This document shows positions 6,697 to 32,187 of a stretch of 64,000 bases of DNA, in pieces. The number at the start of each line of letters is the position of its first letter. The stretch's first letter is position 1. The notes beneath the pieces are model-generated. The model did not search any database, was not told where the DNA came from, and saw nothing but the letters and a program-made list of their open reading frames with translations. Origin of the DNA: Lachnospiraceae bacterium (GTDB lineage: Bacteria; Bacillota; Clostridia; Lachnospirales; Lachnospiraceae); contig JAAWEL010000042.1 of assembly GCA_022794255.1 (NCBI GenBank), positions 1 through 64,000 on the forward strand. The letters run 5' to 3'. The position numbers and the translations under genes were made by a program.

Positions 6697-6745
6697 AGTC
6701 AAAGCCTGATTGGAATGTCAGAATATAAATGAGGAGAGAAATATT

Positions 6746-7834
6746 ATGGAAAAGAAGTTGCGGGCAGGAGTCCTGGGCGCCACCGGAATGGTGGGGCAAA
6801 GATTTATCACTCTTTTGGAGAATCATCCCTGGTTTCAGGTGACTGTGGTAGCAGCAAGCCCCCGGTCTGCCGGAAAAACCTATGAGGAGGCAGTGGGAGG
6901 ACGCTGGAAGATGGATACGTCCATGCCAAACCGTGTAAAAAATCTGGTGGTAATGAATGTTAATGAGGTGGAGAAGGTCTCCGCTGAGGTGGATATGGTA
7001 TTTAGTGCGGTTGACATGAGTAAAGATGAGATCCGTGCCATTGAAGAAGCCTATGCAAAGGCAGAGGTGCCGGTGGTTTCCAACAACAGCGCCCATCGCT
7101 GGACCAAGGATGTTCCCATGGTGGTTCCGGAGATCAATCCGGAGCATTTTGAGGTGATTCCCTTCCAGAAGAAGCGTCTGGGAACAAAGAGAGGGTTTAT
7201 CGCAGTAAAGCCGAATTGCTCGATTCAGAGCTACGCGCCAGTTCTGACGGCCTGGAAGGAATTTGAGCCCTATGAGGTGGTGGCCACCACCTACCAGGCC
7301 ATTTCCGGGGCAGGAAAGACGTTCAAAGACTGGCCGGAGATGGTGGAAAATATCATTCCTTATATCGGCGGTGAGGAAGAGAAGAGCGAGCAGGAGCCTT
7401 TGCGGCTTTGGGGAAAGATTGAGGATGGAGAGATTGTCAAGGCAGCTGAGCCGGTGATTACCTGCCAGTGTATTCGGGTGCCGGTGCTTAACGGACATAC
7501 GGCAGCCGTGTTCGTAAAGTTCCGCAAAAAGCCTGACAGAAAACAGCTGATTGAGAAAATGGTAAGCTTTAAGGGCTTGCCTCAAGAGTTAGAGCTTCCC
7601 AGTGCGCCAAAGCAGTTTATTCAGTATTTGGAGGAGGACAACCGGCCCCAGGTCAGAGCGGATGTGGATTTTGAGAAAGGCATGGGGATTTCTGTCGGAC
7701 GGTTGAGAGAGGATACGGTATATGACTATAAATTTGTAGGCCTGTCCCACAATACCCTGCGAGGCGCTGCCGGCGGGGCAGTGCTCTGTGCGGAGCTTTT
7801 GGTGGCACAGGGATATATGAAAGCAAAGGAGTAA
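6746..7834 (+). CDS. asd: Aspartate-semialdehyde dehydrogenase
   Basis: Reduces L-aspartyl-4-phosphate to L-aspartate-4-semialdehyde with NADPH, the branch to lysine/diaminopimelate, threonine and methionine. The 362-residue protein has the N-terminal Rossmann motif GATGMVG (residues 11-17) and catalytic Cys158 in PNCSIQ. The length and the pattern match the larger archaeal/clostridial-type enzyme. ATG 6746 is preferred (GGAGAG upstream); a longer frame opens at 6710. The gene is monocistronic and followed by a strong terminator, directly before the A+T-rich three-gene island. Confidence 0.93.
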   Translation: MEKKLRAGVLGATGMVGQRFITLLENHPWFQVTVVAASPRSAGKTYEEAVGGRWKMDTSMPNRVKNLVVMNVNEVEKVSAEVDMVFSAVDMSKDEIRAIEEAYAKAEVPVVSNNSAHRWTKDVPMVVPEINPEHFEVIPFQKKRLGTKRGFIAVKPNCSIQSYAPVLTAWKEFEPYEVVATTYQAISGAGKTFKDWPEMVENIIPYIGGEEEKSEQEPLRLWGKIEDGEIVKAAEPVITCQCIRVPVLNGHTAAVFVKFRKKPDRKQLIEKMVSFKGLPQELELPSAPKQFIQYLEEDNRPQVRADVDFEKGMGISVGRLREDTVYDYKFVGLSHNTLRGAAGGAVLCAELLVAQGYMKAKE

Positions 7835-7879
7835 AGGGGCAGGAGCTGAACCTTAAAGGATTTGGATCAGAATATGGAA

Positions 7880-7928
7880 AAAACAGCTGGCAAAAAAAGC
7901 ATTGTGCTTTGATCTGCCAGCTGTTTTT
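7880..7928 (+). terminator. Terminator after asd
   Basis: AAACAGCTGGCA pairs with TGCCAGCTGTTT around a 22-base loop and is followed by a T run. It separates asd from the next operon. Confidence 0.85.
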
Positions 7929-7940
7929 CTGGAAACTCCA

Positions 7941-8045: not shown

Positions 8046-9923
8046 ATGGAAGAAAAAGAGAAATTATATACAAGACTATGGGAAGAATTTATAAATAAGC
8101 TGCATTTGACAGGGAATGCATTTGACAAAGATCTCAGCTCCTTTCTGGAAGGAATAAAATATATTTCTCAGATAAAACTTGATAAAATATCCCACGAATC
8201 CCCCAATGCCTGTGAAGAGAGAAAGAAAATTGATGAAAAAATCCGTGTTGTTGAAGAGTTTATAACAAAATATAAGGAAGATTATTACGAGATCTGCCAG
8301 ATTAAAGGGTTTTGGAGAAATCAAGGTGAGAAAACTACAGGGAGAGATTACTATTACTACATTGCAGACCAAAAGATGAAAGCAAGCGTATATTACCTGA
8401 GATATCTGAATTTTTTGGAACATATGGAAAATAAACCCAAAGAGATTGTGGAGAAAATTTTAGGCGTCTGCAGAAATATAAACGACAATACAAAAGAATT
8501 TTCGGAAATAAAAACACAGTTAGAAAGAAACAGTAAAGAAAGTGAGAAGCTGTTAGATATTTTAGAAGAACTGGAAGATTATATAACCCATGGATCGATT
8601 GATAAAGAGATGGAGCAGGAGGAATATAACGCCAGGGAGAGCTTGCGAAAATTTACGGCAGAGGGAATCCTTATTTTGAATACGGAGAATAATCTTTCCT
8701 ATTTAAAATATATGATGTTCAATAATTTGATGCGTGAAATCCAGTACAACGGGGCGTCCTACCGGTATGTGTGGCACTGGAGAACAAAAACCTGCAACCT
8801 CTACCGTTCCATGTCCGGTTCAGGGCGGGAACCAAAAGAAGAATCTTTTGATGGTCTGCCCAGGGAGGCGTTTATGAGAGGTATGTTTCAGGACTGTATG
8901 AATCACATGAATTCGCCTAGTGATTCCTGGTATTCTTATTCCGAGGACCCTTATTTAGATATTTTTAAATACCTGATGATTCCTAAAGAGAAAAAAGAGG
9001 AGAAGAAACAGGAGATTTTGTATAAAGCCTTAAAGACAGGAATCGCTGTGGAATGTGAGTGGTGCCACAATTCCCAGACAGCAATGTTTGAGATTGTAAA
9101 GGAGGCAAAGATCAATCGCATTTTCTGGAAGGGAGCTGATCTGTCCTTTTATGAATTTATTCAGGAAGCGGGGATTGAAAAGGGGGATGGCATTGCATAT
9201 GCGGTGGAAATATTTCCTCAATCTCTTGCAGGAGAGAAAAACAAGCAGGGGACAGTGAAGTATATGCGGGATAGATACCTTCCTTTGTACTTAAGCTCAT
9301 GGGGGGTGCGTGGAGAATTAAGCAAAATGAAGGTAGCAGACGATAAGGAGGTTATCACTTTTGGAAAATGTTATAACGGTGAGGAACGTATTCAGACAAG
9401 CTTGTCAAAGGAGGATCTGATTTATCTGCTGCTTAAGATCGGGGAAAAGACAAAGGGAAAAGAAATCGTGGAAAAGCTGAAAGAACGGATACGGATAGAC
9501 TATAAAGGAAAAAAATTAGATGATTATGTCATATTCACACTGGCAAATCAGAAAGATAGAGAAAAGAAGCTGTTGGATATAGATATTTTTTTTACTTCAA
9601 ATATTTCACAAAGGCTTGCAGGGAAAATGCACCTGGATCCCTTTTACTTTACATCACTGGAAGAAAACAAAGAAGAAGATACGCCTTCCTTTGGAAAAAT
9701 AGCAGAGAAACGTTTGAAAGATGATATCTATACCACGGTCTGTGATGGATTAGAGGAAAGGTACAAACGGATTCTCAGAGAAAAGCCGGAGAAAGGCGCC
9801 TTTATTTTCTCCCAGATTCATGATGTTCCCTATAATGAAGCCATAAAACTATACAATGATTATAATGAATCAAGTGAGGACGAAGAAATTGTCATGCTAA
9901 AGTATTTTGTTTTTAAGGAGTAA
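8046..9923 (+). CDS. Uncharacterised protein, first gene of the tandem-DUF262 operon
   Basis: A 625-residue soluble protein that I do not recognise. No signal peptide or membrane segment is visible. Residues 1-200 are helical and charged, with coiled-coil-like stretches (EIKTQLERNSKESEKLLDIL). The middle (about 240-460) looks globular and has a single CEWCH pair but no complete zinc site. No P-loop, HNH, PD-(D/E)xK or TIR motif stands out. It begins with AGGAG ten bases upstream and ends five bases before the DUF262 gene, so it is co-transcribed and probably acts with it, perhaps as a sensor or partner. Composition is A+T-rich (bases 8221-8280 are 27% G+C) compared with asd. Confidence 0.75.
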   Translation: MEEKEKLYTRLWEEFINKLHLTGNAFDKDLSSFLEGIKYISQIKLDKISHESPNACEERKKIDEKIRVVEEFITKYKEDYYEICQIKGFWRNQGEKTTGRDYYYYIADQKMKASVYYLRYLNFLEHMENKPKEIVEKILGVCRNINDNTKEFSEIKTQLERNSKESEKLLDILEELEDYITHGSIDKEMEQEEYNARESLRKFTAEGILILNTENNLSYLKYMMFNNLMREIQYNGASYRYVWHWRTKTCNLYRSMSGSGREPKEESFDGLPREAFMRGMFQDCMNHMNSPSDSWYSYSEDPYLDIFKYLMIPKEKKEEKKQEILYKALKTGIAVECEWCHNSQTAMFEIVKEAKINRIFWKGADLSFYEFIQEAGIEKGDGIAYAVEIFPQSLAGEKNKQGTVKYMRDRYLPLYLSSWGVRGELSKMKVADDKEVITFGKCYNGEERIQTSLSKEDLIYLLLKIGEKTKGKEIVEKLKERIRIDYKGKKLDDYVIFTLANQKDREKKLLDIDIFFTSNISQRLAGKMHLDPFYFTSLEENKEEDTPSFGKIAEKRLKDDIYTTVCDGLEERYKRILREKPEKGAFIFSQIHDVPYNEAIKLYNDYNESSEDEEIVMLKYFVFKE

Positions 9924-9928
9924 AGCAG

Positions 9929-12900
9929 ATGGGACAAGAAAACCGTGTAGGCTCGGATCTGATTTCTTTGAGTCAGATGGTAACAAATTTGAAGGGGAAA
10001 AGAGTGACTATTCCTCTGCTTCAAAGAAATTATAAGTGGGACCCAAAGGAAGAGGGAAAAAAGCTTCTCATTGACATTCTGGCGGCAAAGAAAAAAGAGA
10101 GTACCCAATATACAATCGGGATGATAACCCTTTATTTTGACAATAATGAAGGGAAAACGGATATGATTCAGGTGATTGACGGGCAGCAGCGCCTTATTAC
10201 TCTGTCTCTGATGATGAAATCCTTAGGAAAAACAAAGGATTTTCTAAAATTGCATTTTGAGAGAGATGAGGACAGGGAGAGGGAGACATATCTTACAGAA
10301 GATTTTACAGAAGATAAAAAGAAGAACCGCCTTGATCTTCTTCGCATGAAGGCAATGGAGGATTTATTTAAGGATTTATTTGGCAAATGTTCTGACCAGG
10401 ACAGCGGGTTTGACAAAAATGAGCTGTTTCAATGGATTATGGATCATGTAAAATTGATCTGCAGGTATACCAAAAGTCCTCCTCTTCAGGAATTTCTCAA
10501 CATAAATGAGAAAAAAACCCCTTTTTCCTCAACCGATTATGACCGGGCCTATCAGCTTAAATATCAGAGTATAAAGCAAAATATCACACCAGATATGATA
10601 ATCAAGGAGCATAAGGCCATAGAAAAGTATCTGTACCAAAATGCAGAGATTTTTGATTTGGCCAGATGCAGATATGATGAGACAGAGTATATCAACCGGA
10701 TGGATCTGCTTTTTGCCTCTATAAAAGGGGAGGCTAAAAGCTTATCAGAATTTTATGAAAAACTGGACCATGAGGAGCAGGAGAACAGGGAGAGAAAATA
10801 TGAGGAATGTTATAGGTATCTGAAATATTGCCACAAGGCACTAAGAAGTATCCATCAGGAGTTAAAGAAGCAGGAGACCACAGAGAACCAAAAGAAATAT
10901 TTAAATGTAAATATCTATAATGCAGTCCAAACCCTATACAAAATAGACCCCCGATTTAAATTTTTTGATCTGATTAATCGGTCTCATATGGGGCAGGTAT
11001 CCTTTGAGGATGAGCTGATAAAGCGGTTCAGTCTTCTGGAAGAAACTTATATGGCTTATGAGAATAAAAAGAAAAATGAATTTATGCAGTCCCAGCTTGA
11101 GGATAAGCTCATAAAAACAGAAGAAAGATCAATAGGGAGGGAGGCCAGGTATCGGGATCCGTATGATCAGGACGTGAGCGAAGGCCTGATGAAAATTTTT
11201 GAAGAAAGGCTTAAGGAAACCGTAGATCTGATCGAGGCAGGGAAGAACTTTTCAGAGCTGGTAAAAGGAGGAAAACGCAGCTTTCGGGAGATTCTTGAGG
11301 AAAATGAAATCAAAAAGATCGTGATTCCCAGGATTCAGAGAGATTACACTTTGGGAAGTGATAAAAATAGCCTTCTTGGCAGAGATGGCGTGTTGTTTTC
11401 ATTCAGCAAAGCTTATCTGGCAAAATGCCAGGAAGATTCAGGACCGTCTCTTTTGGACTGGACAGGGGAACGGATCGCTGCTTCCTGTCTGAAAAGGGGT
11501 AAATTTTGGGAAGAAATAACATGCAGTGTTTATAGTCGGAAGGCGGAGATGGCGGATGCCTTAGAAAAGCTCCGCAATGATGCTGTCAGCGGGAAGGGTG
11601 GCGGATGGAATACCGAGATCAGTAAATGGCTTAATATATACCCATGCGATTTTAGATACAATGAGAACCGGCATCGTTTTTCCGGTTATTTTGACTATTG
11701 GAAAAAATGCCTGAATATGGACGAGGAAAAATTTAAGAAGGTAAAAACTGGTGAATTTTTTAGAGAATGTAAAAATGAGCCAGAGGAATTTTTGTTCAGT
11801 GTAATATTTGGCTGTTTGGAGGAGGGAAGCTTTTATCTGTATGACGGCCAGCAAAGAATCGTTACTTTGGTTTTCTTGAGTGCATTTATGATTAACCAGA
11901 TGAAGGAAGATACAACCAAAGAGGATACAACCAGGGAAGATAAAATCAGGTACTACAGAAATCTGCTGAGAAAATTTAAATTTGAGGACAAGGAAGATGC
12001 AAACCAGATATTAAAAGATTTGCTGGAAGGGGATAAGCTTTCTATCACAGAGAAATATGCGGATTATGTGACAGATCACACAACCTATTCCATTTGTGAA
12101 CTGTTAAAATGTTATGAAGCCTATGAAAACGGATATGGAAAATCAATTCTGTCTTTTGATCTGGATTTTTTGATGGAAAAGATCATTTTTGAGTTTGCCG
12201 TTGTCTGGGAATCCTCTGTAGCGGATCAGATGTATCTGGATTTAAATTCTAAAAATGTCCCTTTAACGCACTATGAAAATTATAAGGCAGAACTGGTCTA
12301 TTCTCTTCACAGCCGATTTCGGAAAGAGTTTGATGAGAAATGGAAATATCAGCTGGATAACGCATATTTGGATATATGCTTCCAGAGCCCTTTGTGGACC
12401 CATGAGAGTGCAAAAAAGGCCGAAGAAACCGAGATAAAAATCATTCAGTGGTGCTTTAAAATGGCATGTATGGAATTTGAGGAAAGGAAGATCGGCAACA
12501 TTAAAGACAAGAAAAACAGGCTGAGATGGATAGAGGAGGAAAGGGCAGAGGATATCCTGTCCTGTGTGGGATCGATTTTGTCTTTCCAGATTTTTTCATT
12601 TGGCCAAAAAGAAAAAGACAACAGAGACCGGATCACAAAGTACACAGAAGATTGCGATTCCTTTACATGGGATGAATTTCAATTGTGGAATGAGTTGAGA
12701 AAACAGGAGGATGTGGTTTTTCAGCCATGGGCATTTGAGAAAAAGCTTTCTCTTCTCAGAGTCAATAATCTTTGCAGACAAGACGCGATGTGGCTGGCAG
12801 AATATGTGTATTTTCTTGCAAAAAAATATGGTGAAAAAGAAAGTGAAATTATTCAATATCTGATGAGAAAATTTCACATCTATTGGACGGAACAAAGCTT

Positions 12901-13864
12901 AGAGTGCGAGTTGCTGGAAACCATGTTTGGCGTTGAAGAGCCGGAAGAAGCAGATCATGCCAAAGGGCAGAAAAACTACCGGGAATTGTGTGATTTCTTT
13001 TCTGAAAAATATTTAGATGGCAGTATACCAGAAAAATATCAGGGAAAGGGAATGATTGATTATATTTATTGTGTAAAGCTGAATGAGCGGTTGAATGGTT
13101 TGCATTATGAGAAGGTAAGGGAGTGGGAAAGAGCAGAATTTCAAAGGCTTAAGGAGGAAGGAGCTCTTTTTAGCCAGAAGGAGAAAGAGGAGGCCGCCAG
13201 CTATCTGTTTGACTATTCGCTTTTTCAGTATTTCAGGCAGATGAAAAAGAACTGTCAGAAAAAGGCAGTGGAGATAATGCCAGAGGATCTGAATGTTCAA
13301 AAGAGCGTGTTAGAAAAAATAAAGGATGAGGATCTGTTGAATAGCCGTCTGTTCAGGCAAACGGAAAGCATTGGGCAGATAGATATCACCATGAATCTGG
13401 GAAAAGAGACGATACAGAAATATGTTGCAGAGCATATAAAGAAAAACGGCAAATCCAAGCTCACAGGGGCTTTTATTAAGAAAGCCAGGGACTATATTTA
13501 TGTGGAGAAAAACGAGAATGAGGCGTGGAAGCTGCAAAGATATGATGAGAAGGAACACCGGTTTCGGGAGACCGAGTGTATTGAAGTGGAGTGGCTTTGT
13601 ATCAAAGTGGATGAGATGGAGACAGAAGTGAGAAGGATGATGGATCTATGGAAAAACTCAGAAAGGATGGAGCTTCTCTATTTTTGGACGACCGGCCGGA
13701 AGGATGAGGTGAAAAAGATGATTGGAGAAAAGCTTACAAAGGATCGATACACCAGATTTTCCCGGACACTGGATTTTGATAAAAAGAGCTTTCAGATATT
13801 CTGTGAGGAATCTTATAAAAACAAACAGAATGTATATACGATCACAAGAGAAGGTGAGCAATGA
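9929..13864 (+). CDS. Large protein with two DUF262 (GmrS/ParB-like) modules
   Basis: A 1311-residue cytoplasmic protein. Module 1: QRNYKW (32-37) and IDGQQRLITL (83-92), then a degenerate FDLINR segment near 346. Module 2: IQRDY (469-473), a roughly 165-residue insertion, YDGQQRIVTL (638-647), and LNSKNVPLT (772-780), the usual follow-on motif of DUF262. The DGQQR motif belongs to the ParB/sulfiredoxin-like fold used by GmrS, SspE and BrxU for nucleotide hydrolysis. The last 450 residues are unassigned and I find no DUF1524 HNH nuclease. DUF262 proteins are commonly restriction or anti-phage factors; that role here is inference. AAGGAG overlaps the preceding stop codon; the 3' end overlaps the next gene by four bases (ATGA). 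Confidence 0.85.
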   Translation: MGQENRVGSDLISLSQMVTNLKGKRVTIPLLQRNYKWDPKEEGKKLLIDILAAKKKESTQYTIGMITLYFDNNEGKTDMIQVIDGQQRLITLSLMMKSLGKTKDFLKLHFERDEDRERETYLTEDFTEDKKKNRLDLLRMKAMEDLFKDLFGKCSDQDSGFDKNELFQWIMDHVKLICRYTKSPPLQEFLNINEKKTPFSSTDYDRAYQLKYQSIKQNITPDMIIKEHKAIEKYLYQNAEIFDLARCRYDETEYINRMDLLFASIKGEAKSLSEFYEKLDHEEQENRERKYEECYRYLKYCHKALRSIHQELKKQETTENQKKYLNVNIYNAVQTLYKIDPRFKFFDLINRSHMGQVSFEDELIKRFSLLEETYMAYENKKKNEFMQSQLEDKLIKTEERSIGREARYRDPYDQDVSEGLMKIFEERLKETVDLIEAGKNFSELVKGGKRSFREILEENEIKKIVIPRIQRDYTLGSDKNSLLGRDGVLFSFSKAYLAKCQEDSGPSLLDWTGERIAASCLKRGKFWEEITCSVYSRKAEMADALEKLRNDAVSGKGGGWNTEISKWLNIYPCDFRYNENRHRFSGYFDYWKKCLNMDEEKFKKVKTGEFFRECKNEPEEFLFSVIFGCLEEGSFYLYDGQQRIVTLVFLSAFMINQMKEDTTKEDTTREDKIRYYRNLLRKFKFEDKEDANQILKDLLEGDKLSITEKYADYVTDHTTYSICELLKCYEAYENGYGKSILSFDLDFLMEKIIFEFAVVWESSVADQMYLDLNSKNVPLTHYENYKAELVYSLHSRFRKEFDEKWKYQLDNAYLDICFQSPLWTHESAKKAEETEIKIIQWCFKMACMEFEERKIGNIKDKKNRLRWIEEERAEDILSCVGSILSFQIFSFGQKEKDNRDRITKYTEDCDSFTWDEFQLWNELRKQEDVVFQPWAFEKKLSLLRVNNLCRQDAMWLAEYVYFLAKKYGEKESEIIQYLMRKFHIYWTEQSLECELLETMFGVEEPEEADHAKGQKNYRELCDFFSEKYLDGSIPEKYQGKGMIDYIYCVKLNERLNGLHYEKVREWERAEFQRLKEEGALFSQKEKEEAASYLFDYSLFQYFRQMKKNCQKKAVEIMPEDLNVQKSVLEKIKDEDLLNSRLFRQTESIGQIDITMNLGKETIQKYVAEHIKKNGKSKLTGAFIKKARDYIYVEKNENEAWKLQRYDEKEHRFRETECIEVEWLCIKVDEMETEVRRMMDLWKNSERMELLYFWTTGRKDEVKKMIGEKLTKDRYTRFSRTLDFDKKSFQIFCEESYKNKQNVYTITREGEQ

Positions 13865-14559
13865 AAACGTTGGATGATATTTTAAGCGCCTGTTCTGATA
13901 TGGAAGAACTGATAAAGGGAAGAATAATCTATGGAGATTCTCTTCCGGGCGACTCTTCGGAAATGCCGTTTGGAGATTCAATCCGGGATAAAATACAGGC
14001 AATGAAGTATTTTGACGGAACCATGGAAGCTTTTGACGACCTGGATGGAAAAAGCCTATGGAAAACCATATATGATAAGATTTGGAAGATTAATTTCAAT
14101 GAGAAATGGATTCCTGACGGCATTTTCCTGGATGAAAAGCAGACCGAGACGGCATTAAAGCTATATTTTGCCCTAGAGCCTGTGAAAAAGGATACATATG
14201 GTGGGCAAAAGAAATCCCTGATGGAAGCATTTGAAAAAATGTTTGCAGTCTTATATTTGAAATATGGAAACCAGACAGAAGGATATGAGAAATTAAAAAA
14301 CATCGCATATCAGGCGTATCAGGACTTTAAAGATATACGGGATATTGTTGACAGGCAGATGGAAAATAAGTCCTCCGAAGACGATCATTTTCTGCCCGTG
14401 AGGAAAGTTTCAGAGAGCTATAACAGGTGGCAGGGAATCCGGATCGAAGAAGTGAGAGATGACAGGGAGGAGATGGGAAAACATCTGGGAGAGGCATTTT
14501 TTAAAGAGAATGGCAAAGAAGAGTCATGGTTCAGTAAACACTTCGGCGGTCATGACTAA
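13861..14559 (+). CDS. Uncharacterised protein, third gene of the tandem-DUF262 operon
   Basis: A 232-residue soluble, acidic, helix-rich protein with no motif I recognise. It starts within the stop codon of the DUF262 gene (ATGA overlap), which implies translational coupling and a fixed stoichiometry with the large protein. The C-terminus (EAFFKENGKEESWFSKHFGGHD) is charged. There is no visible catalytic motif; an accessory or inhibitor role is possible but unsupported by sequence. Base composition matches the two upstream genes, not the following galM. Confidence 0.75.
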   Translation: MKTLDDILSACSDMEELIKGRIIYGDSLPGDSSEMPFGDSIRDKIQAMKYFDGTMEAFDDLDGKSLWKTIYDKIWKINFNEKWIPDGIFLDEKQTETALKLYFALEPVKKDTYGGQKKSLMEAFEKMFAVLYLKYGNQTEGYEKLKNIAYQAYQDFKDIRDIVDRQMENKSSEDDHFLPVRKVSESYNRWQGIRIEEVRDDREEMGKHLGEAFFKENGKEESWFSKHFGGHD

Positions 14560-14773: not shown

Positions 14774-15829
14774 ATGGCGTGGAAAAAAGAAGTGTTTGGA
14801 ACACTGGAAAACGGGGGGCAGGTTGATAAGTACATCCTGACCAATAAAAATGGTGTAAGTGCTGCATTTACAAACTTAGGCGGCATCTGGCTGTCTATGG
14901 TTGTGCCGGACAGGGAAGGGAATATGGGGGATGTTCTCTTGGGAAGAGATACCGTAGAGCGGTGCCTTACCTTGTCTGGTCATTTGGGTGAGATTGTAGG
15001 CCGCAATGCCAATCGGATCGGCGATGCCACCTTCACCTTAAACGGTGTCACCTATGCGTTGGGAATCAATTCAGCTGACCGAAACAATCTCCACAGCGGC
15101 CCGGACTATTATCGCAGCCGCCTGTGGGATACAAAGGCAGAGGATACGGATGAGGGGACAAGGATAACCTTTTCTTTGTTCAGCCCGGATGGAGACCAGG
15201 GGTATCCGGGGAATGCCGATATTTTAGTGAGCTATACCCTGACAGAGGACAACAGCCTTCGTCTGGATTATTATATGAAAGCTGATGGAGACACAGTGGC
15301 CAATTTTACAAATCATGCCTACTTTAATCTGGCTGGTCATGAGTCAGGCAGTGTGCTGAAGCAAAAGGTATGGATCGATGCAGACTATTTTACTGTCACG
15401 GACAAAGACTCCATTCCCACAGGAGAGCTAGTGCCAGTGAAGGGGACCCCCATGGATTTCACCTCCCTGAAGGCAATCGGGCAGGAGATCGGGGCAGATT
15501 ATGAACCGTTGATTTTTGGAAAGGGCTATGACCACAACTGGGCACTGAACCACCCTGCAGGCCAGCTGTCTCTCTCTGTAAAGGCAGTGGATGAGGCCAG
15601 CGGCCGGGGGATGGAGGTTTATACGGATCTTCCGGGCGTACAGTTTTATACAGGCAATATGCTTGACGGAACCGGCAAGGATGGGGTAGAGTACAAGGCC
15701 CGGGGAGGGTATTGCTTTGAGACACAGCACTATCCAGATGCAGTCAATAAGCCTCAGTTTCCTTCACCGTTTTTGAAAGCAGGAGAGGAGTACCGGACTA
15801 CTACGATTTATCATTTTACTGTTTTATAA
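14774..15829 (+). CDS. galM: Aldose 1-epimerase (mutarotase)
   Basis: Interconverts alpha and beta anomers of galactose, glucose and related sugars ahead of their kinases. The 351-residue cytoplasmic protein shows the family motifs: RNANRI substrate loop, catalytic acid His181 in NHAYFNLAGH and catalytic base Glu316 in CFETQHYPDA. Length is normal for the family. The start has AGGAGG ten bases upstream. It is a single gene with its own promoter and terminator; no galK, galT or galE is adjacent. It marks the return to the host base composition after the DUF262 operon. Confidence 0.93.
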   Translation: MAWKKEVFGTLENGGQVDKYILTNKNGVSAAFTNLGGIWLSMVVPDREGNMGDVLLGRDTVERCLTLSGHLGEIVGRNANRIGDATFTLNGVTYALGINSADRNNLHSGPDYYRSRLWDTKAEDTDEGTRITFSLFSPDGDQGYPGNADILVSYTLTEDNSLRLDYYMKADGDTVANFTNHAYFNLAGHESGSVLKQKVWIDADYFTVTDKDSIPTGELVPVKGTPMDFTSLKAIGQEIGADYEPLIFGKGYDHNWALNHPAGQLSLSVKAVDEASGRGMEVYTDLPGVQFYTGNMLDGTGKDGVEYKARGGYCFETQHYPDAVNKPQFPSPFLKAGEEYRTTTIYHFTVL

Positions 15830-17578: not shown

Positions 17579-18151
17579 ATGAGTAGAATCGAACAATTGA
17601 TCGGTGAGATTGAAGAATATATTGACAGCTGTAAGTTTTCTCCGCTGTCAAACACAAAGATACAGGTAAACAAAGAGGAGCTAGAGGAGCTTTTGGTAGA
17701 GCTGCGTCTGAGGATTCCGGATGAGATCAAAAAGTACCAGAAGATAATAAGCAATCAGGACGCGATTATTTCTGAAGCGAAAACCCAGGCAGACACGATT
17801 CTGGCTCAGGCCACGGAACAGACCAATGAGCTGGTGAATGAACATGAGATTATGCAGCAGGCATATACCAGGGCAAATGAGATCGTGGAGGAGGCCCAGG
17901 CCCAGGCCCAGGCCATCATTGACAATGCGGTGGCTGATGCCAACAGTATCCGCCAGGGATCGATCAATTATACAGATGAAATGTTAAAAAGCCTGCAGAT
18001 GATTATCAGCCATTCCATGGAAGGAGCCCAGGGACGTTTTGCAGAATACCTATCTTCTATGCAATCCACCTATGAGATAGTTACAGCCAACCGCAATGAG
18101 CTGGCGTCAGGGATCAGCTCGGAAGAAGAAATGGGAGCAGCAGCGCAATAA
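17579..18151 (+). CDS. Coiled-coil protein (DivIVA / V-ATPase subunit H-like)
   Basis: A 190-residue soluble protein dominated by a long Ala/Glu/Gln-rich helical coiled coil (about residues 55-130, including a repeated AQAQAQA stretch). Proteins of this look downstream of coaD in Clostridia are often labelled ATPase or V-type ATP synthase subunit H-like, but no such enzyme is nearby. A structural or cell-pole role is equally possible. GGAGAGGGAAG precedes the ATG. Its last 38 bases overlap the convergent YlbJ-like gene. Confidence 0.7.
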   Translation: MSRIEQLIGEIEEYIDSCKFSPLSNTKIQVNKEELEELLVELRLRIPDEIKKYQKIISNQDAIISEAKTQADTILAQATEQTNELVNEHEIMQQAYTRANEIVEEAQAQAQAIIDNAVADANSIRQGSINYTDEMLKSLQMIISHSMEGAQGRFAEYLSSMQSTYEIVTANRNELASGISSEEEMGAAAQ

Positions 18152-19115
18152 GACAGGACAGACTGGCATGAAGAAACTTCCAGCCTACATAATGGGAGAT
18201 GGAGAGCCCGGAGCCCCGGATAACGCTTCGGGTCTGAAAGATCCCGGAAAAACCTCCGAAGGCCACAGCAGACAGAACCGGCAGCAGGCTTTGAGAGTCA
18301 GGAAATGCTTTGCATAGACGGCTGACCCCGGTGGTGATTTCTGCAGCGCCGGCTAAAAGAGCGCGGAAGCTTTCAGGAAGAAAAGTAAGCCGGTCAATCC
18401 ATACAACCAGAATCGAGAACAGCATAATATAACCGCCAATGATAACCATTGTTTCGCAGGTGGAGGCAATGGTATCCTCCAGAGACGGTTTTTTTGTGAT
18501 GTCTGAAATCTGGTTTTGGCCAGGACTCTTAAGAGGAGTCTTGGAAAGAGCGGACTTGTCAGAAACATCCAAACGATAGATAAACCTGGCAAGAAAAGAC
18601 AGGGGAAGAATGGGCAGATAAAGACATGCGATCAGCCACAGAGGTGACACAAGAAGATTGAGCTGTGCCTGTACATATCCCAAAAGGAACATCGGACTGG
18701 GATGATTGCAGATGGCCAAAAGATAGGCGGATTCCTCCGGGGAGATGGATCCGCTTTTTTTAAAGTCTGCACACATTCTGGCACCCAGAGGATAGCCGCA
18801 GAGAAGGCCGCACAGCAGGATGTAGGAGCCGGGAATACTTACCTGAAACAGACCTTTTAGAAAGGGGCTGAAAGGTTTCATGAGCAGTTCCACCCCGCCC
18901 AGAGCCGTGATCATCTGCGTGCAGATGATAAAGGGGGCCAGGGTGGGGAGAACCACGTTGAACCACAGAAGAAGGCCGTTTAAGGCCCCCTGGACTGACA
19001 GGGACGGGAAGGTGAGCAGCAGCCCCAATAGCAGGATGGGAAGAATGGGCAGACTGCAAAGCATGGGGCGATGAACGGCTGAAGAAAAGGATGGATCATT
19101 TAAGGGATTGGTCAT
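18114..19115 (-). CDS. ylbJ: YlbJ-like sporulation membrane protein (nucleoside recognition domain)
   Basis: A 333-residue integral membrane protein with about eight hydrophobic segments and the Gate/nucleoside-recognition features NVVLPTLAPF, LLCGYPLGARM and CNHPSPMF. In Bacillus YlbJ is a sporulation membrane protein needed for heat-resistant spores; a role here in the same process is inferred. Its position next to coaD and the coiled-coil gene is usual in this lineage. ATG 19115 has GGAGG five bases upstream; a TTG four codons earlier is less likely. Its 3' end overlaps the convergent coiled-coil gene by 38 bases. Confidence 0.8.
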   Translation of the reverse strand: MTNPLNDPSFSSAVHRPMLCSLPILPILLLGLLLTFPSLSVQGALNGLLLWFNVVLPTLAPFIICTQMITALGGVELLMKPFSPFLKGLFQVSIPGSYILLCGLLCGYPLGARMCADFKKSGSISPEESAYLLAICNHPSPMFLLGYVQAQLNLLVSPLWLIACLYLPILPLSFLARFIYRLDVSDKSALSKTPLKSPGQNQISDITKKPSLEDTIASTCETMVIIGGYIMLFSILVVWIDRLTFLPESFRALLAGAAEITTGVSRLCKAFPDSQSLLPVLSAVAFGGFSGIFQTRSVIRGSGLSISHYVGWKFLHASLSCLIALLLPFLLPS

Positions 19116-19211
19116 GGCTGCCTCCAATGGTAGGTTGAGAGATTTCTCTGCTTTCTCTCATTCTATGAGAACCTTAGGAGAGACATTCCATTGTCCGGGT
19201 CTTAACCGGAT

Positions 19212-21006: not shown

Positions 21007-21948
21007 ATGAGATGCATTGGGGTGGTTGGAGTTGGAAACATGGGGGCAGGGATAGCTCACAATCTGGCAAAAGGGGATTTTCAGGTAATGATTTATTCCA
21101 GACGGTGCCAGGATCCTTGTTTTAGGCCGGAGGAGGACGAAGTTTTTGGCCGGTTGATTCAGGAAGGGTGTGTGGTTGCCAGAACTTTGAAGGAGGTGGG
21201 AGGATTTTCTGAGGCTGTGATTACCAGTGTGCCGCTGCCGGAGGATTTTTTGAATGTGTGTGCAGGAGAGGAAGGGCTGCTTGCCAGTATGAGAAAGGGG
21301 ACTTACATCATTGACACCAGCACGATTGATGTGGAGACTACCCGGAGAGTACATACCTTGGGAAAGGACAGAGGGGTGAGGACATTGGATGCTCCTGTCA
21401 GCGGGGGACCGGCTGGGGCCAAAAGTGGCACAATGACAATTATGGTTGGTGGAAATGAGGAGGATTTTCAGGCTTGCAAGGAGATTTTTGCGTGTATCGG
21501 CGGCAATATCAACTATATGGGACAGATTGGAACCGGTCAGATGGTGAAGCTTTGCAATCAGGCTATTTCTGCTTCTCAGAGTGCGGTGATGGGGGAGGTG
21601 TTTGTGACTGGTATTAAGGCCGGGCTTAACCTTGCAGATATGGCCCGGGTGATTCGCACCAGCTCGGGGAATTGCTGGATGTTAGAGAATTTTTTCCCGG
21701 AAACAGTTTTTAAAAATCAGTTTGACCCGCCACGGTTTGCTTTGCGGATGATGTTAAAGGATATTGATTTGTATATGCGGACAGCCAAGGCATTGGGGGT
21801 TCCCAGTCTTGTCTCCGGAACGGTGATGCAGATGTTTACGGCAGCAGTGGCTATGGGGAAGGGAGAGCTGGATGTGACATCGGTGGTTCAGGTGGCGGAG
21901 GAGCTGGGAAAGCAGCGGATTGTTACCGGTGATGAGAGCAAGGACTGA
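21007..21948 (+). CDS. Beta-hydroxyacid dehydrogenase (3-hydroxyisobutyrate dehydrogenase family)
   Basis: NAD(P)-dependent oxidoreductase of 313 residues that oxidises a 3-hydroxyacid to a semialdehyde or performs the reverse reduction. The Rossmann motif GVGNMG is at the N-terminus, the substrate loop DAPVSGGPAGAKSG in the middle, and catalytic Lys181 in GQMVKLCNQ. Relatives act on 3-hydroxyisobutyrate, tartronate semialdehyde, 3-hydroxypropionate or sulfolactaldehyde; the sequence alone does not choose. It is the first gene of the catabolic operon, before the glycyl radical enzyme. A second family member lies at 29735. Confidence 0.85.
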   Translation: MRCIGVVGVGNMGAGIAHNLAKGDFQVMIYSRRCQDPCFRPEEDEVFGRLIQEGCVVARTLKEVGGFSEAVITSVPLPEDFLNVCAGEEGLLASMRKGTYIIDTSTIDVETTRRVHTLGKDRGVRTLDAPVSGGPAGAKSGTMTIMVGGNEEDFQACKEIFACIGGNINYMGQIGTGQMVKLCNQAISASQSAVMGEVFVTGIKAGLNLADMARVIRTSSGNCWMLENFFPETVFKNQFDPPRFALRMMLKDIDLYMRTAKALGVPSLVSGTVMQMFTAAVAMGKGELDVTSVVQVAEELGKQRIVTGDESKD

Positions 21949-21989
21949 TCCTGGACAAAGGAGATGGATGACAGGAAGGAGAGATGGGT

Positions 21990-24353
21990 ATGACCGAGCG
22001 GATCAGGCGTTTAAAGGAGCTTTTTCTGACTACAAAGAAAAGTATCTGTATTGAGCGTGCCAGGATTGTGACAAAGGCCTATCAGGAGATGGAAGAGGAG
22101 CCAGTTATTTTAAAGCGGGCAAAGGTGTTGGACCGAATCTTGTCAGAGATGACCATCTATGTGAAGGAAGACGAACTGATTGCAGGGCACAATGCGAGCC
22201 GGGTGGGAGGGCTTTCGGTAGTTCCAGAGGTCCAGGCAAACTGGATTTTGAAACAGCTGGATGATTTTTCTGTCAGGAAGATTTTTCCGGCGGCAATATC
22301 AGATGAGGACAAGGAGGAGCTAAGAGAAATTCTTCCCTATTGGAGAGGAAGAACCGTGGAGGACCGGGGGATGGTCAACATACCGGAGGAGACCCGAAAG
22401 GTGTTTGGAATGTCCCCGGCAGTTATCACTTTAGGCTCCCATCTGCGGGGAACATCCGGACATATCACCGTGGATTACGGAAAGGTTCTTCAAAAAGGCT
22501 TTTGTGGTATCTTAAAGGAAGCGCAAAAGAAGAAAGAAAGTCTGAACTTGACCGATCCGTTTGTGAAGGAAAAGCTGGATTTTTATGAGGCGGTGGAGAT
22601 CGTATGCCGGGCTGCGGTGAAATTTGCCGGGCGTTACAGTGAGCTGTTAGCCAGGATGGCAGAAGAATGCGGGGATGGGAGGCGTAAAAGAGAGCTTGAG
22701 ATCATGTCTCGGATTTGCAGGAAGGTGCCTGCCAATCCGGCCACTTCCTTTTACGAGGCCGTGCAGTCCTTTTGGCTTACTCACGTGATCATTATGATTG
22801 AGACCGAGGGGCCATCCACTTCCCCGGGGCGGATGGATCAGTATCTGTATCCTTATTGCCAGATGGACCAGGATGCAGGGGTCTGGGATGAGGCTTTTGC
22901 CCAGGAGCTGCTTGATAATCTGTTTATTCGTTTCAATGAGGTGGACCGGGTGCCGAATGTTCCGGTAAATGCCTCCACCTATGTCAATGCCAATTCCATG
23001 TCTGAGATGGTGATTGTGGGCGGGCAGGACAAACAGGGAAATGATGCCACAAATCTTCTCACCTACATGTTTTTTACTGCTCAGAGACATACAGGCTTTC
23101 CCATGCCCGCATTTGGGGTACGCCTTCACAGCAAAACGCCCAGAAAGCTTCTTTTTAAGATTGTTCATCTTGCAAAAACCAGCTGCGGAAAGCCTTCTAT
23201 GTTTAATGACGAGGTGATCATTGAAAGTCTGTTAAAGGATGGCGTCACTTTGGAAGATGCCCGGGATTACGGGGTGATCGGATGTGTGGAGCCAGCCCCT
23301 TCCGGCAACAGCTTTACCTGGTGCAATGCTGCCATGATGAATCTGGCCAAATGTTTGGAGCTGGCACTTTTTAACGGGACAGATCCTGTAAGCGGAAAAA
23401 AGGTTAATGGTATTACCTGTATCGGGGAGGACAGCTCTTTTGAGGAGATTGTGGCTGCCTATGAAAAACAGGTGGAATACTATGCGCTTCATATGGTGGT
23501 GATGTTAAACAATCTGGATAAGATTCAGGCAGAGAATATGCCCATTCCCTATGTTTCCAGCATGATGGACGGCTGTCTGGAAAAGGGGATGGATATCACT
23601 TTGGGAGGGGCTAAATACAATTATGTAGGGCCTCAGGGGATCGGGCTTGCAGATGTGACGGACTCTCTTTTGGCAATCCGTCAGGCTGTTTTTAAGGAAC
23701 AAAAATATACCCTTGAGGAGATAAAAAAAGCCATGGCAGATAATCACAGGGATGAAAGGATGCATCAGTATCTACTAAATATGTGTGAGAAATTCGGCAA
23801 TGATGACCCTGAGGTAGACGCCTTTGCCCAGAGAATCGGCAGCCATTACTGTTCGCTGTTTAAGCATGTGAAAAACCGCAGAGGCGGGGGCTACCGTCCG
23901 GGATTGTACTCAGTTGCCGGCCATGTGGCTTTGGGAAATGCGGCCGGGGCTCTCCCTGACGGAAAGAAACGCAACCAGAGTCTTGCGCATGGAGTATCTC
24001 CTGTATATGGTTCGGCCAAAAAAGGGCTGACCGCTATTTTTCACTCTGTGGGCAGGCTGGATCTTACCATGTCTCCCAACGGGACAAGCCTAAATCCCAA
24101 TATTCATCCCACTTTGCTGAGAACGAGAGAGGATGAAGAGAAGATGGTGGATGTGCTGCGAAAATTTGTAGATGAGAAGATTATGCACCTTTGCTTTAAT
24201 GTAGTTACAGAGGAAACTCTGCGGGATGCGCAGGCACATCCGGAAAAATACCGAAGTCTTGTGGTACGCATTTCCGGGTACTGTGCTTTTTTCACAGAGC
24301 TTAGCTATGATATTCAGATGGATGTGATCCGCCGCTGCGGAGTGTATGAATAA
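21990..24353 (+). CDS. Glycyl radical enzyme, dehydratase/lyase type
   Basis: A 787-residue anaerobic radical enzyme. The thiyl-radical cysteine is Cys432 and the general base Glu434 in GCVEP; the glycyl radical site is Gly763 in RISGY near the C-terminus. This is the layout of B12-independent glycerol dehydratase-type enzymes. The substrate-side segments (GPSTSPGRMDQYLYP and APSGNSFTWCNAA) differ from the forms I associate with glycerol, choline or propanediol enzymes, so the substrate is open: a hydroxylated or sulfonated small molecule is likely. Pyruvate formate-lyase is excluded by the lack of a CC pair. ATG 21990 is preferred (AAGGAG eight bases upstream) over ATG 21984. The activase gene lies downstream at 27673. 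Confidence 0.88.
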   Translation: MTERIRRLKELFLTTKKSICIERARIVTKAYQEMEEEPVILKRAKVLDRILSEMTIYVKEDELIAGHNASRVGGLSVVPEVQANWILKQLDDFSVRKIFPAAISDEDKEELREILPYWRGRTVEDRGMVNIPEETRKVFGMSPAVITLGSHLRGTSGHITVDYGKVLQKGFCGILKEAQKKKESLNLTDPFVKEKLDFYEAVEIVCRAAVKFAGRYSELLARMAEECGDGRRKRELEIMSRICRKVPANPATSFYEAVQSFWLTHVIIMIETEGPSTSPGRMDQYLYPYCQMDQDAGVWDEAFAQELLDNLFIRFNEVDRVPNVPVNASTYVNANSMSEMVIVGGQDKQGNDATNLLTYMFFTAQRHTGFPMPAFGVRLHSKTPRKLLFKIVHLAKTSCGKPSMFNDEVIIESLLKDGVTLEDARDYGVIGCVEPAPSGNSFTWCNAAMMNLAKCLELALFNGTDPVSGKKVNGITCIGEDSSFEEIVAAYEKQVEYYALHMVVMLNNLDKIQAENMPIPYVSSMMDGCLEKGMDITLGGAKYNYVGPQGIGLADVTDSLLAIRQAVFKEQKYTLEEIKKAMADNHRDERMHQYLLNMCEKFGNDDPEVDAFAQRIGSHYCSLFKHVKNRRGGGYRPGLYSVAGHVALGNAAGALPDGKKRNQSLAHGVSPVYGSAKKGLTAIFHSVGRLDLTMSPNGTSLNPNIHPTLLRTREDEEKMVDVLRKFVDEKIMHLCFNVVTEETLRDAQAHPEKYRSLVVRISGYCAFFTELSYDIQMDVIRRCGVYE

Positions 24354-24371
24354 AAATCGGGAGGTAAAGAA

Positions 24372-25478
24372 ATGAGAAGAAATTACAGGATTATGGCAGG
24401 GATACTTGGGGGGATCCTGGCGGCAGGAATCCTTGCAGGCTGTGGGGAAAACAGCAGCGGGGCAGGAAGTCAACCCACTTCCTTTGAGGAGACAAAGGCG
24501 GCATCCACCGAGGCAGCAGCGAAAGAGGAGATAAAAAAGGAAGAGGCGTCCGGTGAGCCTGAGAGTGGGAAAGAGGTTTCCCAGGCAGAGCGCTGGAAGC
24601 CAACCGGCCCGATCACTTTGATTGTACATAATGCGGCTGGCAGCGGAACGGATACCATTTTCCGTGCATGGGCGGCAGCAGCAGAGAAAAGGCTGGGAGT
24701 GTCCATTGTGATTGAAAATATCGGCGGCGGCGCCTTTATTCCCGCCATGTCTGCCATTGCCGATGCCAAGCCGGACGGATACACGATCGGAGGAATCACA
24801 GAGTCCCCCTACTATGCAGCAGGCTATATGGGAGACTACAGTGTGGATTTGTTCGGTCAGCTGGATGTGCTTTTGCAGGGGGTGGAGAACTTTAATCTTC
24901 TGGCAGTGGGGGCAGATGCACCTTATGATACCTTAGAGGAATTTATCCAATATGCGAAGGATCATCCCAAGGAAAATATTACTCTGGGAAATTCTGGTGT
25001 GGGAGGGATTCATGATATCACCATCAAAGGCCTTGCAAAGGAGGCCGGGCTGTCCAATGTCTCCTCCATTGCCTACGGAGGCGCCAGCGATTCGGCGGCA
25101 GCTGTGGCCGGAGGCCATATTGTAGGACATGTGGCTGGTTTTTCCCCCAACCGTTCTCTGATTGAGTCTGGCCATATTAAGCTGATCGGCACCTTTAAGG
25201 AGGGAGCAGACCGGGATGAACGGTTTGCAGAGCTTGCGTCTGCCAATGAGTTAGGATATGAGGTGACAGGGCTTCAAAAGTGGGGAATCTGTGTGCCGGC
25301 AGGGACAGAGGAGAATGTAAGGCAGACCTTATGTGATGCATTTCAAGCTTCTCTAGAGGACTCGGATTTTATGGAAAGCGTGGAAGTTCAGGGAATGTTG
25401 ATCCACTATATTGACGGGGAAGCCCTGACTTTTATCTATCAGGAGATTTATGACAGTGCGGCGGAATTTGCAGAATAA
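24372..25478 (+). CDS. Tripartite tricarboxylate transporter substrate-binding lipoprotein (TctC family)
   Basis: A 368-residue extracytoplasmic binding protein. The N-terminus is a lipoprotein signal with lipobox LAGC (Cys24), followed by a Glu/Ala-rich linker and the Bug/TctC fold (GPITLIVHNAAGSGTDTIFR, then VIENIGGGAFIPA and DGYTIGG). It captures the substrate and delivers it to TctA/TctB. Members bind carboxylates and, in some bacteria, sulfolactate, which fits catabolism by the surrounding enzymes. GGGAGG precedes the ATG. It begins 18 bases after the glycyl radical enzyme. Confidence 0.9.
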   Translation: MRRNYRIMAGILGGILAAGILAGCGENSSGAGSQPTSFEETKAASTEAAAKEEIKKEEASGEPESGKEVSQAERWKPTGPITLIVHNAAGSGTDTIFRAWAAAAEKRLGVSIVIENIGGGAFIPAMSAIADAKPDGYTIGGITESPYYAAGYMGDYSVDLFGQLDVLLQGVENFNLLAVGADAPYDTLEEFIQYAKDHPKENITLGNSGVGGIHDITIKGLAKEAGLSNVSSIAYGGASDSAAAVAGGHIVGHVAGFSPNRSLIESGHIKLIGTFKEGADRDERFAELASANELGYEVTGLQKWGICVPAGTEENVRQTLCDAFQASLEDSDFMESVEVQGMLIHYIDGEALTFIYQEIYDSAAEFAE

Positions 25479-25535
25479 ATGTCTCACCGGAGGGCTGTGG
25501 CCTCCGGGATTGTATGCAACAGGGGGTGTAGGAAT

Positions 25536-26060
25536 ATGAAGTCTGAATATAATAAGGAATTGTCATCAGGAGCGGAGAGGATTCTGGCAGGTATTGTCTT
25601 TCTGATGATCTCAGCGGTTATCGGCTTTTACATGATACCAAAAACGATCAAAGGATCGGCCGGCACAGGCATTGCAAACAATCCCAGAATATTTCCGGCA
25701 ATCTATACCATCTGTCTGGCAGGGGCATCTCTTCTCCTCTTTTTTATGGGACTAAAGGAATGCTTAAAGCACAAGGAGAGGCTCCGAAGTGAACCTATAA
25801 AAAGGGAATTGGTGCGGCTTTTCCTTCTGGATTCTTTGTCCCTGATTATTTTTGCCGGCTTAAGTGTGATCTTTTGTGTTCTGGCTCCCCTGCTGGGCTT
25901 CTTTTTCAGCGGCTTTCTGGTTATGGCGGCAGCAGCCTTTTATCTGGGCAACCGGGGAATCCGGTGGGTGATTTTGTTTCCGGCGGTCTTTATGGTCCTG
26001 CTCTGGCTTGTATTTGTGGTGCTGCTGTCTGTGCGATTTCCTGCGGGAATCCTGATGTAG
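25536..26060 (+). CDS. Tripartite tricarboxylate transporter small membrane subunit (TctB family)
   Basis: A 174-residue membrane protein with four hydrophobic segments (about residues 15-35, 55-75, 100-130 and 140-170), the usual TctB size. It pairs with the large TctA permease in sodium- or proton-driven uptake. The reading frame opens earlier at 25479, but the ATG at 25536 fits a normal TctB N-terminus and has a G-rich ribosome site nine bases upstream. Located between tctC and tctA. Confidence 0.82.
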   Translation: MKSEYNKELSSGAERILAGIVFLMISAVIGFYMIPKTIKGSAGTGIANNPRIFPAIYTICLAGASLLLFFMGLKECLKHKERLRSEPIKRELVRLFLLDSLSLIIFAGLSVIFCVLAPLLGFFFSGFLVMAAAAFYLGNRGIRWVILFPAVFMVLLWLVFVVLLSVRFPAGILM

Positions 26061-26074
26061 GAAGGAGGGACAAA

Positions 26075-28563: not shown

Positions 28564-28634
28564 GATGCCCGTTTGTATAAGGTGTTTTTCGCACAAAATT
28601 TTAAAGGAAACAGGAAAATGGAGGAGGAAAAGAA

Positions 28635-29651: not shown

Positions 29652-29734
29652 GACAGAAAAGTCTGTGGCAGCCTGATTGGCCTAAGCTGCCGCGAAGAAG
29701 CATAAAACAAGAAGGGCGGACAGGGGGAAAAGAA

Positions 29735-30649: not shown

Positions 30650-30664
30650 GGAGGATATTTTATT

Positions 30665-32101: not shown

Positions 32102-32130
32102 AATTCTGGTTTGCTAAAATTCCGATTTAC

Positions 32131-32186
32131 AAAAAGAGACTGCTGTTCCAACTTATCAAAATTTTGTGGAACAGCAGTCTCTTTTC
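32131..32186. terminator. Bidirectional terminator between the two aldehyde dehydrogenase genes
   Basis: A perfect 19-bp stem (32132-32150 with 32167-32185) flanked by A and T runs on either side serves both convergent genes. Confidence 0.9.
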
Positions 32187-32187
32187 A

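What the first reader, a model, noticed from the sequence alone, without database searches (positions are those of the whole stretch)
8046..14559. Undescribed-looking three-gene operon built around a tandem DUF262 protein
Three tightly coupled genes (5-base gap, then a 4-base ATGA overlap) encode two proteins I cannot assign and a 1311-residue protein with two DUF262 modules. DUF262 is known from GmrSD, SspE and BrxU, all anti-phage restriction proteins. The operon sits alone between housekeeping genes asd and galM, behind a terminator and with its own promoter, and is A+T-rich. It could be a new defence system with a novel sensor (gene 1) and a coupled third component.
Basis: partly seen in the sequence, partly recalled or inferred. 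Interest (0 to 1): 0.85.

Follow-up and report, generated by a model that had tools for sequence, protein, structure and literature searches.

The report
Nuclease-less tandem DUF262 defence-like operon
A gut bacterium carries a rare three-gene cassette that looks like an anti-virus restriction system of a known kind, but its usual DNA-cutting domain is missing and two proteins of unknown type travel with it instead.

Summary
In detail: genes of 625, 1311 and 232 aa at 8046-14559, a 5-base gap, a 4-base ATGA overlap, two DUF262 modules. The same set occurs in two other Lachnospiraceae MAGs. In L021 gene 3 is fused to gene 2; in L022 gene 2 is split between its modules. So gene 2 is a fused two-protein pair and gene 3 a real partner. 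Both modules are distantly but significantly related to the two proteins of a widespread DUF262 pair (first: DUF262 + DUF1524-type His-Me nuclease; second: DUF262 only), the layout published for GrwAB. That nuclease, found in 7 of 7 first proteins profiled, was not detected in any of 9 proteins of the three operons. Genes 1 and 3 match nothing in the libraries searched. The cassette is patchy (1 of 24 genus genomes), A+T-rich, and sits where 10 of 23 congeners have asd beside galM. Best reading: a divergent, nuclease-swapped GrwAB-like anti-phage complex with gene 1 as effector candidate.

The parts
8046..9923 (+). Gene 1, 625 aa, family without a name; candidate effector (or recognition) subunit
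   Evidence: ORF; homologues of 593 and 571 aa directly upstream of the DUF262 gene in L021 and L022, 40% identity each; no library match above cut-off; best PDB match E 0.15
9929..13864 (+). Gene 2, 1311 aa, tandem DUF262 protein
   Evidence: ORF; PF03235 6.7e-20, two stretches
9929..11293 (+). Module 1 of gene 2 (residues 1-455): DUF262 related to the first protein of A/B pairs, without a detectable DUF1524-type nuclease
   Evidence: profile match to A-type proteins, 98.8%, E 1.2e-16, query columns 11-270 only; no His-Me match
10019..10033 (+). QR motif of module 1 (LQRNY, residues 31-35)
10178..10192 (+). DGQQR motif of module 1 (residues 84-88), conserved in L021 and L022
11294..13861 (+). 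Module 2 of gene 2 (residues 456-1311): DUF262 related to the second protein of A/B pairs, with long C-terminal part of unknown fold
   Evidence: profile match to B-type proteins 98.1%, E 1.2e-13; its 4 hits in 299 family genomes besides the two orthologous loci are B proteins of A/B pairs
11333..11347 (+). QR motif of module 2 (IQRDY, residues 469-473)
11348..11842 (+). Stretch between the QR and DGQQR motifs of module 2: 170 residues from motif start to motif start (223 in L021, 158 in L022), against 50-55 in 7 of 8 B-type proteins (the eighth, L036, was not matched by the QR pattern used)
   Evidence: motif positions
11843..11857 (+). DGQQR motif of module 2 (residues 639-643), conserved in L021 and L022
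13861..14559 (+). Gene 3, 232 aa, fast-evolving partner; fused to the C-terminus of gene 2 in L021
   Evidence: ORF; BLASTP E 1e-6 with L022 gene 3, 6e-5 with residues 1439-1634 of the L021 fusion
7876..7930 (+). Hairpin between asd and gene 1, probable asd terminator
   Evidence: -29.1 kcal/mol, z -5.3, 0 of 200 shuffles as stable
6710..7834 (+). asd (left neighbour; not part of the system)
   Evidence: present in 24 of 24 genus genomes
14774..15829 (+). galM (right neighbour; not part of the system)
   Evidence: about 35-378 bp from asd in 10 of 23 other genus genomes

Best explanation
The operon is a horizontally acquired, multi-subunit anti-phage (type IV restriction-like) system that diverged from the two-protein DUF262 pairs of the GrwAB kind. 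SHOWN by sequence: the two DUF262 modules, separate proteins in one relative and in the pairs, are fused here; both keep the QR and DGQQR nucleotide-pocket motifs; the DUF1524-type His-Me nuclease of the first protein of such pairs is not detectable; and two proteins without known relatives (gene 1 upstream, gene 3 downstream and once fused) accompany them in all three genomes found. INFERRED: the two DUF262 modules form an NTP-driven DNA-scanning/gating unit, as proposed for GrwAB, SspE and BrxU. On meeting foreign (perhaps base-modified) DNA they bind or hydrolyse NTP and switch on an effector. Since the standard nuclease is missing, the effector is most likely gene 1, a conserved, probably soluble protein. 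The fast-evolving gene 3, tethered to module 2, would be an adaptor or recognition element.
For: Same set in three genomes with 28-45% identity and with a fusion (L021) and a split (L022), which argues that the products work together. Module 1 matches A-type and module 2 matches B-type proteins of DUF262 pairs. Several of the eight pair loci opened lie near helicases (a Schlafen group 3 helicase in one) or transposases. The published pair of the same layout, GrwAB, needs both DUF262 NTP motifs and the nuclease for anti-phage activity (PMC12137116 section 11); TgvAB likewise (passages). A His-Me profile from 7 A-type proteins finds each one when it is left out of the training (E<=3.1e-20, 7 of 7), but none of the 9 proteins of the three operons (best E 0.19 with all seven, 0.028 over all training sets). 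Patchy presence: 1 of 24 in the genus, 2 of 397 in the family sample, 1 of 13 in the genus of G076. The asd-galM junction is without it in 10 of 23 congeners, and the GC is low.
Against: No phage assay. Neither in the window nor in L021 does it sit in an obvious defence island: the neighbours read by eye as housekeeping genes (not scanned with PADLOC). No relative of gene 1 in phages or plasmids, none of gene 2 in phages, none of gene 1 or module 2 in viral contigs; gene 2 matches plasmids only over 16% of its length. Gene 1 has no recognisable nuclease or other catalytic motif, so its effector role rests on what is missing elsewhere and on its conservation. Only three sets are known. The kinship to A/B pairs covers the DUF262 parts only, and the operon is far from them, so a His-Me domain diverged beyond recognition is not excluded: Pfam's own GmrSD_C model misses 2 of the 7 A-type proteins.
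Confidence: 0.55

Rival explanations
1. Same defence complex, but gene 1 (not gene 3) is the target-recognition or sensor subunit, and nuclease activity lies in the uncharacterised C-terminal half of module 2 or in the long stretch between its two motifs.
For: The 158-223 residue spacing between QR and DGQQR was seen only in this family (50-55 in 7 of 8 B-type proteins); the module-2 C-terminus has about 500 residues of unknown fold with several invariant columns; in published GrwB the DUF262 is also followed by domains of unknown function.
Against: No nuclease family was found there: for module 2 no PADLOC match and only GmrSD_N in Pfam, and no PDB match at E<=1. Gene 1 is conserved like a core component.
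Confidence: 0.2
2. A defence system without DNA cleavage (overlaps with the best explanation as to gene 1 being the effector): the DUF262 pair controls a non-nuclease effector that stops the host cell or translation, comparable in principle to published DUF262 systems without DUF1524 (Menshen, Dazbog, PD-T4-2).
For: Systems with DUF262 and without DUF1524 exist and protect (PMC10952713 passages). No nuclease domain was found in any of the three proteins.
Against: Nothing positive identifies the effector type; none of the three proteins has a strong hydrophobic stretch (maximum 19-residue hydropathy 0.44, 1.33 and 0.48), so a pore-forming effector is unlikely.
Confidence: 0.15
3. Not defence: a strain-specific DNA-metabolism or regulatory operon that has re-used DUF262 modules.
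For: Stands alone between housekeeping genes; not seen in phage records or viral contigs, nor as full-length copies on plasmids; its nuclease is missing.
Against: Patchy, A+T-rich and acquired; the DUF262 functions covered in the passages read are in defence.
Confidence: 0.15

Closest known systems
GrwAB (Vibrio cholerae VSP-II WASA), two-gene GmrSD-like system; PMC12137116, section 11 and passages read
   Same: Two DUF262 proteins encoded first/second with QR and DGQQR motifs; the second has DUF262 followed by long unknown domains. The Lachnospiraceae and plasmid A/B pairs with which gene 2 aligns have the same layout.
   Different: Here the two are fused, the first lacks a detectable DUF1524-type nuclease, the second has a 158-223 residue motif-to-motif spacing, and genes 1 and 3 are added. 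GrwA/GrwB sequences themselves were not in hand.
TgvAB (V. cholerae VPI-2); PMC11411939, passages read
   Same: Two DUF262 proteins both needed, DGQQR needed in both.
   Different: TgvAB carries DUF1524 in TgvB and consists of two genes only.
GmrSD / BrxU / SspE single-chain enzymes; PMC10952713 and PMC4619093, passages read
   Same: DUF262 NTPase module; the PADLOC matches of gene 2 are to models called HEC-06, Orf5 and SspE.
   Different: Best stretches lie within the first ~135 residues; no DUF1524 detected; tandem DUF262; two extra genes.
Menshen / Dazbog / PD-T4-2 (DUF262 without DUF1524); review passages
   Same: DUF262 proteins without their own His-Me nuclease, working with other subunits. 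The first DUF262 protein of L022 matches PADLOC NsnA weakly (4.6e-5, residues 16-89), as generic DUF262 kinship would give.
   Different: No Menshen component was matched by the window's three proteins at E<=1; tandem DUF262 and other partner proteins here.

Membership tests
GrwAB-like two-gene GmrSD systems | Two DUF262 modules in A-then-B order | tested here: met
   module 1 ~ A-type, module 2 ~ B-type; split into two genes in L022
GrwAB-like two-gene GmrSD systems | QR and DGQQR motifs in both modules | tested here: met
   residues 31/84 and 469/639; both motifs present in both modules of the window, L021 and L022
GrwAB-like two-gene GmrSD systems | C-terminal DUF1524 His-Me nuclease in the first protein | tested here: not met
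   custom profile: 7 of 7 A-type proteins found when left out of training (E<=3.1e-20), none of 9 proteins of the three operons (best 0.19 with the full profile). Pfam PF07510: found at E<=0.5 in 5 of 7 A-type proteins (3 above its cut-off), in none of the gene-2 proteins
GrwAB-like two-gene GmrSD systems | Direct sequence similarity to V. cholerae GrwA and GrwB | not tested
   those sequences were not fetched; only pairs of the same layout from Lachnospiraceae and plasmids were compared
GrwAB-like two-gene GmrSD systems | Restriction of phages with modified DNA | not testable with these tools
   needs plaque assays
GmrSD / BrxU / SspE | N-terminal DUF262 | tested here: met
   PF03235 6.7e-20
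GmrSD / BrxU / SspE | DUF1524 in the same or a partner protein | tested here: not met
   PF07510 does find the own genome's 847-aa GmrSD-like protein at 2.8e-25
Menshen | DUF262 protein with OLD-type nuclease partner | tested here: not met
   no Menshen model matched by the window's three proteins at E<=1 (the L022 first DUF262 protein gives NsnA 4.6e-5); no nuclease domain in genes 1 and 3
HEC-06 (PADLOC) | Full-length match to a single-chain model of 558-569 aa | tested here: not met
   best stretch covers residues 8-135 of gene 2 and 8-129 of the 569-position model

The most novel reading that the evidence does not exclude
A new class of DUF262 immune complex in which the GmrSD-type His-Me nuclease has been replaced by a previously undescribed effector family (gene 1), gated by a fused double-DUF262 NTPase and tuned by a fast-evolving tethered subunit (gene 3).
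Probability: 0.4. Interest if true: 0.72.

Novelty: new variant of a known kind. Interest (0 to 1): 0.52.

Why it matters
Two-protein DUF262 systems (TgvAB, GrwAB) were described in 2024-2025, and why two DUF262 proteins are needed is left open in the passages read. A natural relative that keeps both DUF262 modules but has apparently discarded the nuclease separates the NTPase/sensing part from the cutting part. It points to gene 1 as a candidate new effector, and it makes the division of labour testable with few constructs. If the effector is new, it adds a protein family to the immune repertoire of gut Lachnospiraceae.

Tried and rejected
Structure prediction: unavailable, hence no fold search. 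Gene 1 against Pfam, NCBIfam, PHROGs, PADLOC and the PDB: only sub-threshold matches (CP12 0.029, BglI 0.11, DruC 0.036, a c-type cytochrome 0.13, a thioesterase 0.15); none was shared by more than one of the three homologues in the Pfam and PADLOC scans, so rejected. I looked by eye for PD-(D/E)XK, HEPN and HNH patterns among the invariant residues of gene 1 and found no convincing one. Gene 1 as a displaced piece of an A-type protein, and gene 3 as a displaced piece of a B-type protein: no similarity. Weak class-level gene-1 hits (3 of 391 besides the own genome) rejected after opening each: G480 lies in an aldolase-like frame, G660 at the end of a uvrC-like gene and the next start, across stop codons, G720 in a 171-aa frame beside parB; these names are by eye. 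Hotspot idea for the asd 3' end: in 9 further congeners the downstream region differs but shows no repeated defence content that I recognised, so not claimed. Own promoter: scan negative. Viral-contig scans with gene 1 and module 2: no relative. Gene 1 in phages and plasmids, gene 3 in plasmids: no match.

Literature: I noticed no description of this trio in the listings of searches of the open library. Genes 1 and 3 have no name to search for, so this is weak evidence.

Full report
OBSERVATION. One search confirms three adjacent intact genes on the + strand: gene 1 8046-9923 (625 aa), gene 2 9929-13864 (1311 aa) and gene 3 13861-14559 (232 aa). Genes 1 and 2 are 5 bases apart; genes 2 and 3 overlap by ATGA. 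Gene 2 matches Pfam GmrSD_N/DUF262 in two stretches (6.7e-20) and has DGQQR at residues 84 and 639. Genes 1 and 3 match nothing above a cut-off in Pfam or NCBIfam and nothing convincing in PHROGs, PADLOC or the PDB. The three genes have GC 0.375-0.407, against 0.491 (sd 0.025, minimum 0.429) for 45 other ORFs of the window. A stable hairpin follows asd. No sigma-70 promoter was found before gene 1.

CO-OCCURRENCE. One scan of the GTDB contig collection with gene 2 gave two relatives among 13 pattern matches. L021 is a Lachnospiraceae MAG (title 'Lapin-011', rabbit by that name) and evidently the same genome as G076: the contig name ends in 26, and G076:C26 reads the same over the 1411 residues shown. 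L022 is a Lachnospiraceae MAG with iMGMC in its title (mouse gut, recalled). Both carry a gene-1 homologue directly upstream (593 and 571 aa, 40% identity each). In L021 gene 2 runs on into a gene-3-like tail (one 1634-aa protein). In L022 gene 2 is two genes of 428 and 699 aa, followed by a separate gene 3 of 223 aa. Gene 3 is weak but significant: BLASTP E 1e-6, 6e-5 and 3e-7 for the three pairwise comparisons. The pattern search is insensitive to diverged copies, so 'three genomes' is a lower limit.

DISTRIBUTION. With the gene-1 profile: own genome only, 1 of 24, in the genus; 2 of 397 in the family sample; 1 of 13 in the genus of G076; in the class 4 of 391 at E<=0.01, of which three are weak fragments that I opened and take as chance; 1 of 299 in the phylum sample. 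These samples overlap. No relative of gene 1 or module 2 in viral contigs; none of gene 2 or gene 1 in phages; none of gene 1, module 2 or gene 3 in plasmids; whole gene 2 gave 4 plasmid records with a partial module-1 match (16% of gene 2, 27-28% identity). Gene 3 was not searched in phages.

SITE. asd was found in 24 of 24 genomes of the genus. galM follows asd within 1.5 kb in 10 of the 23 others, with gaps of about 35-378 bp. Of the other 13: three have rsmD downstream of asd and no galM in the 1.5 kb held (L048, L060, L061) and one ends at the contig edge (L062); the remaining nine were fetched further. There, one has two ORFs of at least 90 aa between asd and galM (L071), two have galM nearby on the other strand (L067, L068), and six show no galM in the fetched 5-11 kb (L063-L066, L069, L070). 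The operon is therefore most simply an acquisition into a region that varies; I do not claim a defence hotspot.

RELATION TO KNOWN PAIRS. Searching 299 family genomes with the module-2 profile gave, besides the two orthologous loci, four hits (G018, G086, G087, G217). All four are the second gene of a two-gene DUF262 pair. The first gene of these pairs (569-617 aa) has DUF262 plus a C-terminal His-Me motif region (EHIHAQ... H...N...LNN); the second (713-787 aa) shows DUF262 as its only significant Pfam family in the two tested. A plasmid search with a second-gene protein matched 17 records, of which I opened four (Peptoclostridium, Paraburkholderia, Aliarcobacter, Chryseobacterium); in each a DUF262 gene directly precedes, in Paraburkholderia annotated as two overlapping pieces and left out of my first-protein set. 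Profile-profile comparison: module 1 against A-type 98.8%, E 1.2e-16, ending at query column 270; module 2 against B-type 98.1%, E 1.2e-13. Genes 1 and 3 show no similarity to the profile each was compared with nor to the profiles. In the PDB the A-type profile matches DUF262 proteins (20yv, 9jfl) and SspE, module 1 only SspE at 0.031.

LOSS OF THE NUCLEASE. A His-Me profile from seven A-type proteins finds none of the nine proteins of the three operons (best 0.19). As an independent control, each of the seven is found when left out of the training (E 3.1e-20 or better), and the two most distant are found by the other five alone (1.2e-19, 2.3e-14), while the nine stay at 0.028 or worse. Pfam's DUF1524 model is less sensitive: it finds 5 of the 7 A-type proteins at E<=0.5, 3 of them above its cut-off, and none of the gene-2 proteins. 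The L022 module-1 protein is a separate gene of 428 aa, shorter than any A-type protein (555-623 aa). In module 2 the two nucleotide motifs are 158-223 residues apart, against 50-55 in 7 of 8 B-type proteins.

MECHANISM. GrwAB, a published pair of the same layout, needs DGQQR of both proteins and the nuclease of GrwA, and acts on phages with modified DNA (PMC12137116, section 11). TgvAB also needs both proteins (PMC11411939, passages). I infer that the present system keeps the two-module NTP-driven recognition/gating unit. Lacking the nuclease, it needs another effector. Gene 1 is the best candidate, since it is present in all three sets and about as conserved (40%, 40%) as module 1 (45%, 40%) and module 2 (36%, 41%), while gene 3 diverges faster (29%, 28%) and is physically tied to module 2 in L021. 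None of the steps of action has been shown. A nuclease hidden in the module-2 C-terminus, a non-nuclease abortive effector, and a non-defence role remain open.

VERDICT. Real, conserved, probably a defence system, and a new variant of the DUF262 pair kind. By the nuclease test it is not a member of GrwAB/GmrSD as defined, though it may work like them. What is new is the apparent loss of the nuclease, the fusion, and two constant partner families without known relatives. 

Noticed in passing
window 21007-33711: A run of genes (dehydrogenases, a 789-aa protein that looks by eye like a glycyl radical enzyme, a radical-SAM activase-like protein, aldehyde dehydrogenases, transporter-like genes) lies between 18114-19127 and 34905. 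Their homologues are adjacent in two congeners (L067, L068), and in a third (L071) the homologues of 17579-18151 and 34905 are one ORF apart: probably a second acquired, metabolic island. Functions named by eye.
   Followed up: no
L080 (own genome contig C14) 4599-7142 and 14176-16329, - strand: The same genome has a single-chain GmrSD-like enzyme (DUF262 + DUF1524 + DUF4268, 847 aa) and a separate protein with a DUF262 match below cut-off (717 aa) about 7 kb away.
   Followed up: partly
L022 12008-15710: Four genes without a Pfam match at E<=0.001 (401, 332, 246 and 208 aa) follow the operon in L022, the first overlapping gene 3 by 11 bases; they may be further cargo of the same acquired segment.
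   Followed up: partly
L038 1461-13825: A DUF262 pair with GrwAB-like layout lies between a Schlafen-group-3 helicase protein and, on the other side, a NUDIX-like protein (by eye) and a 902-aa helicase-like protein: a likely defence island.
   Followed up: no
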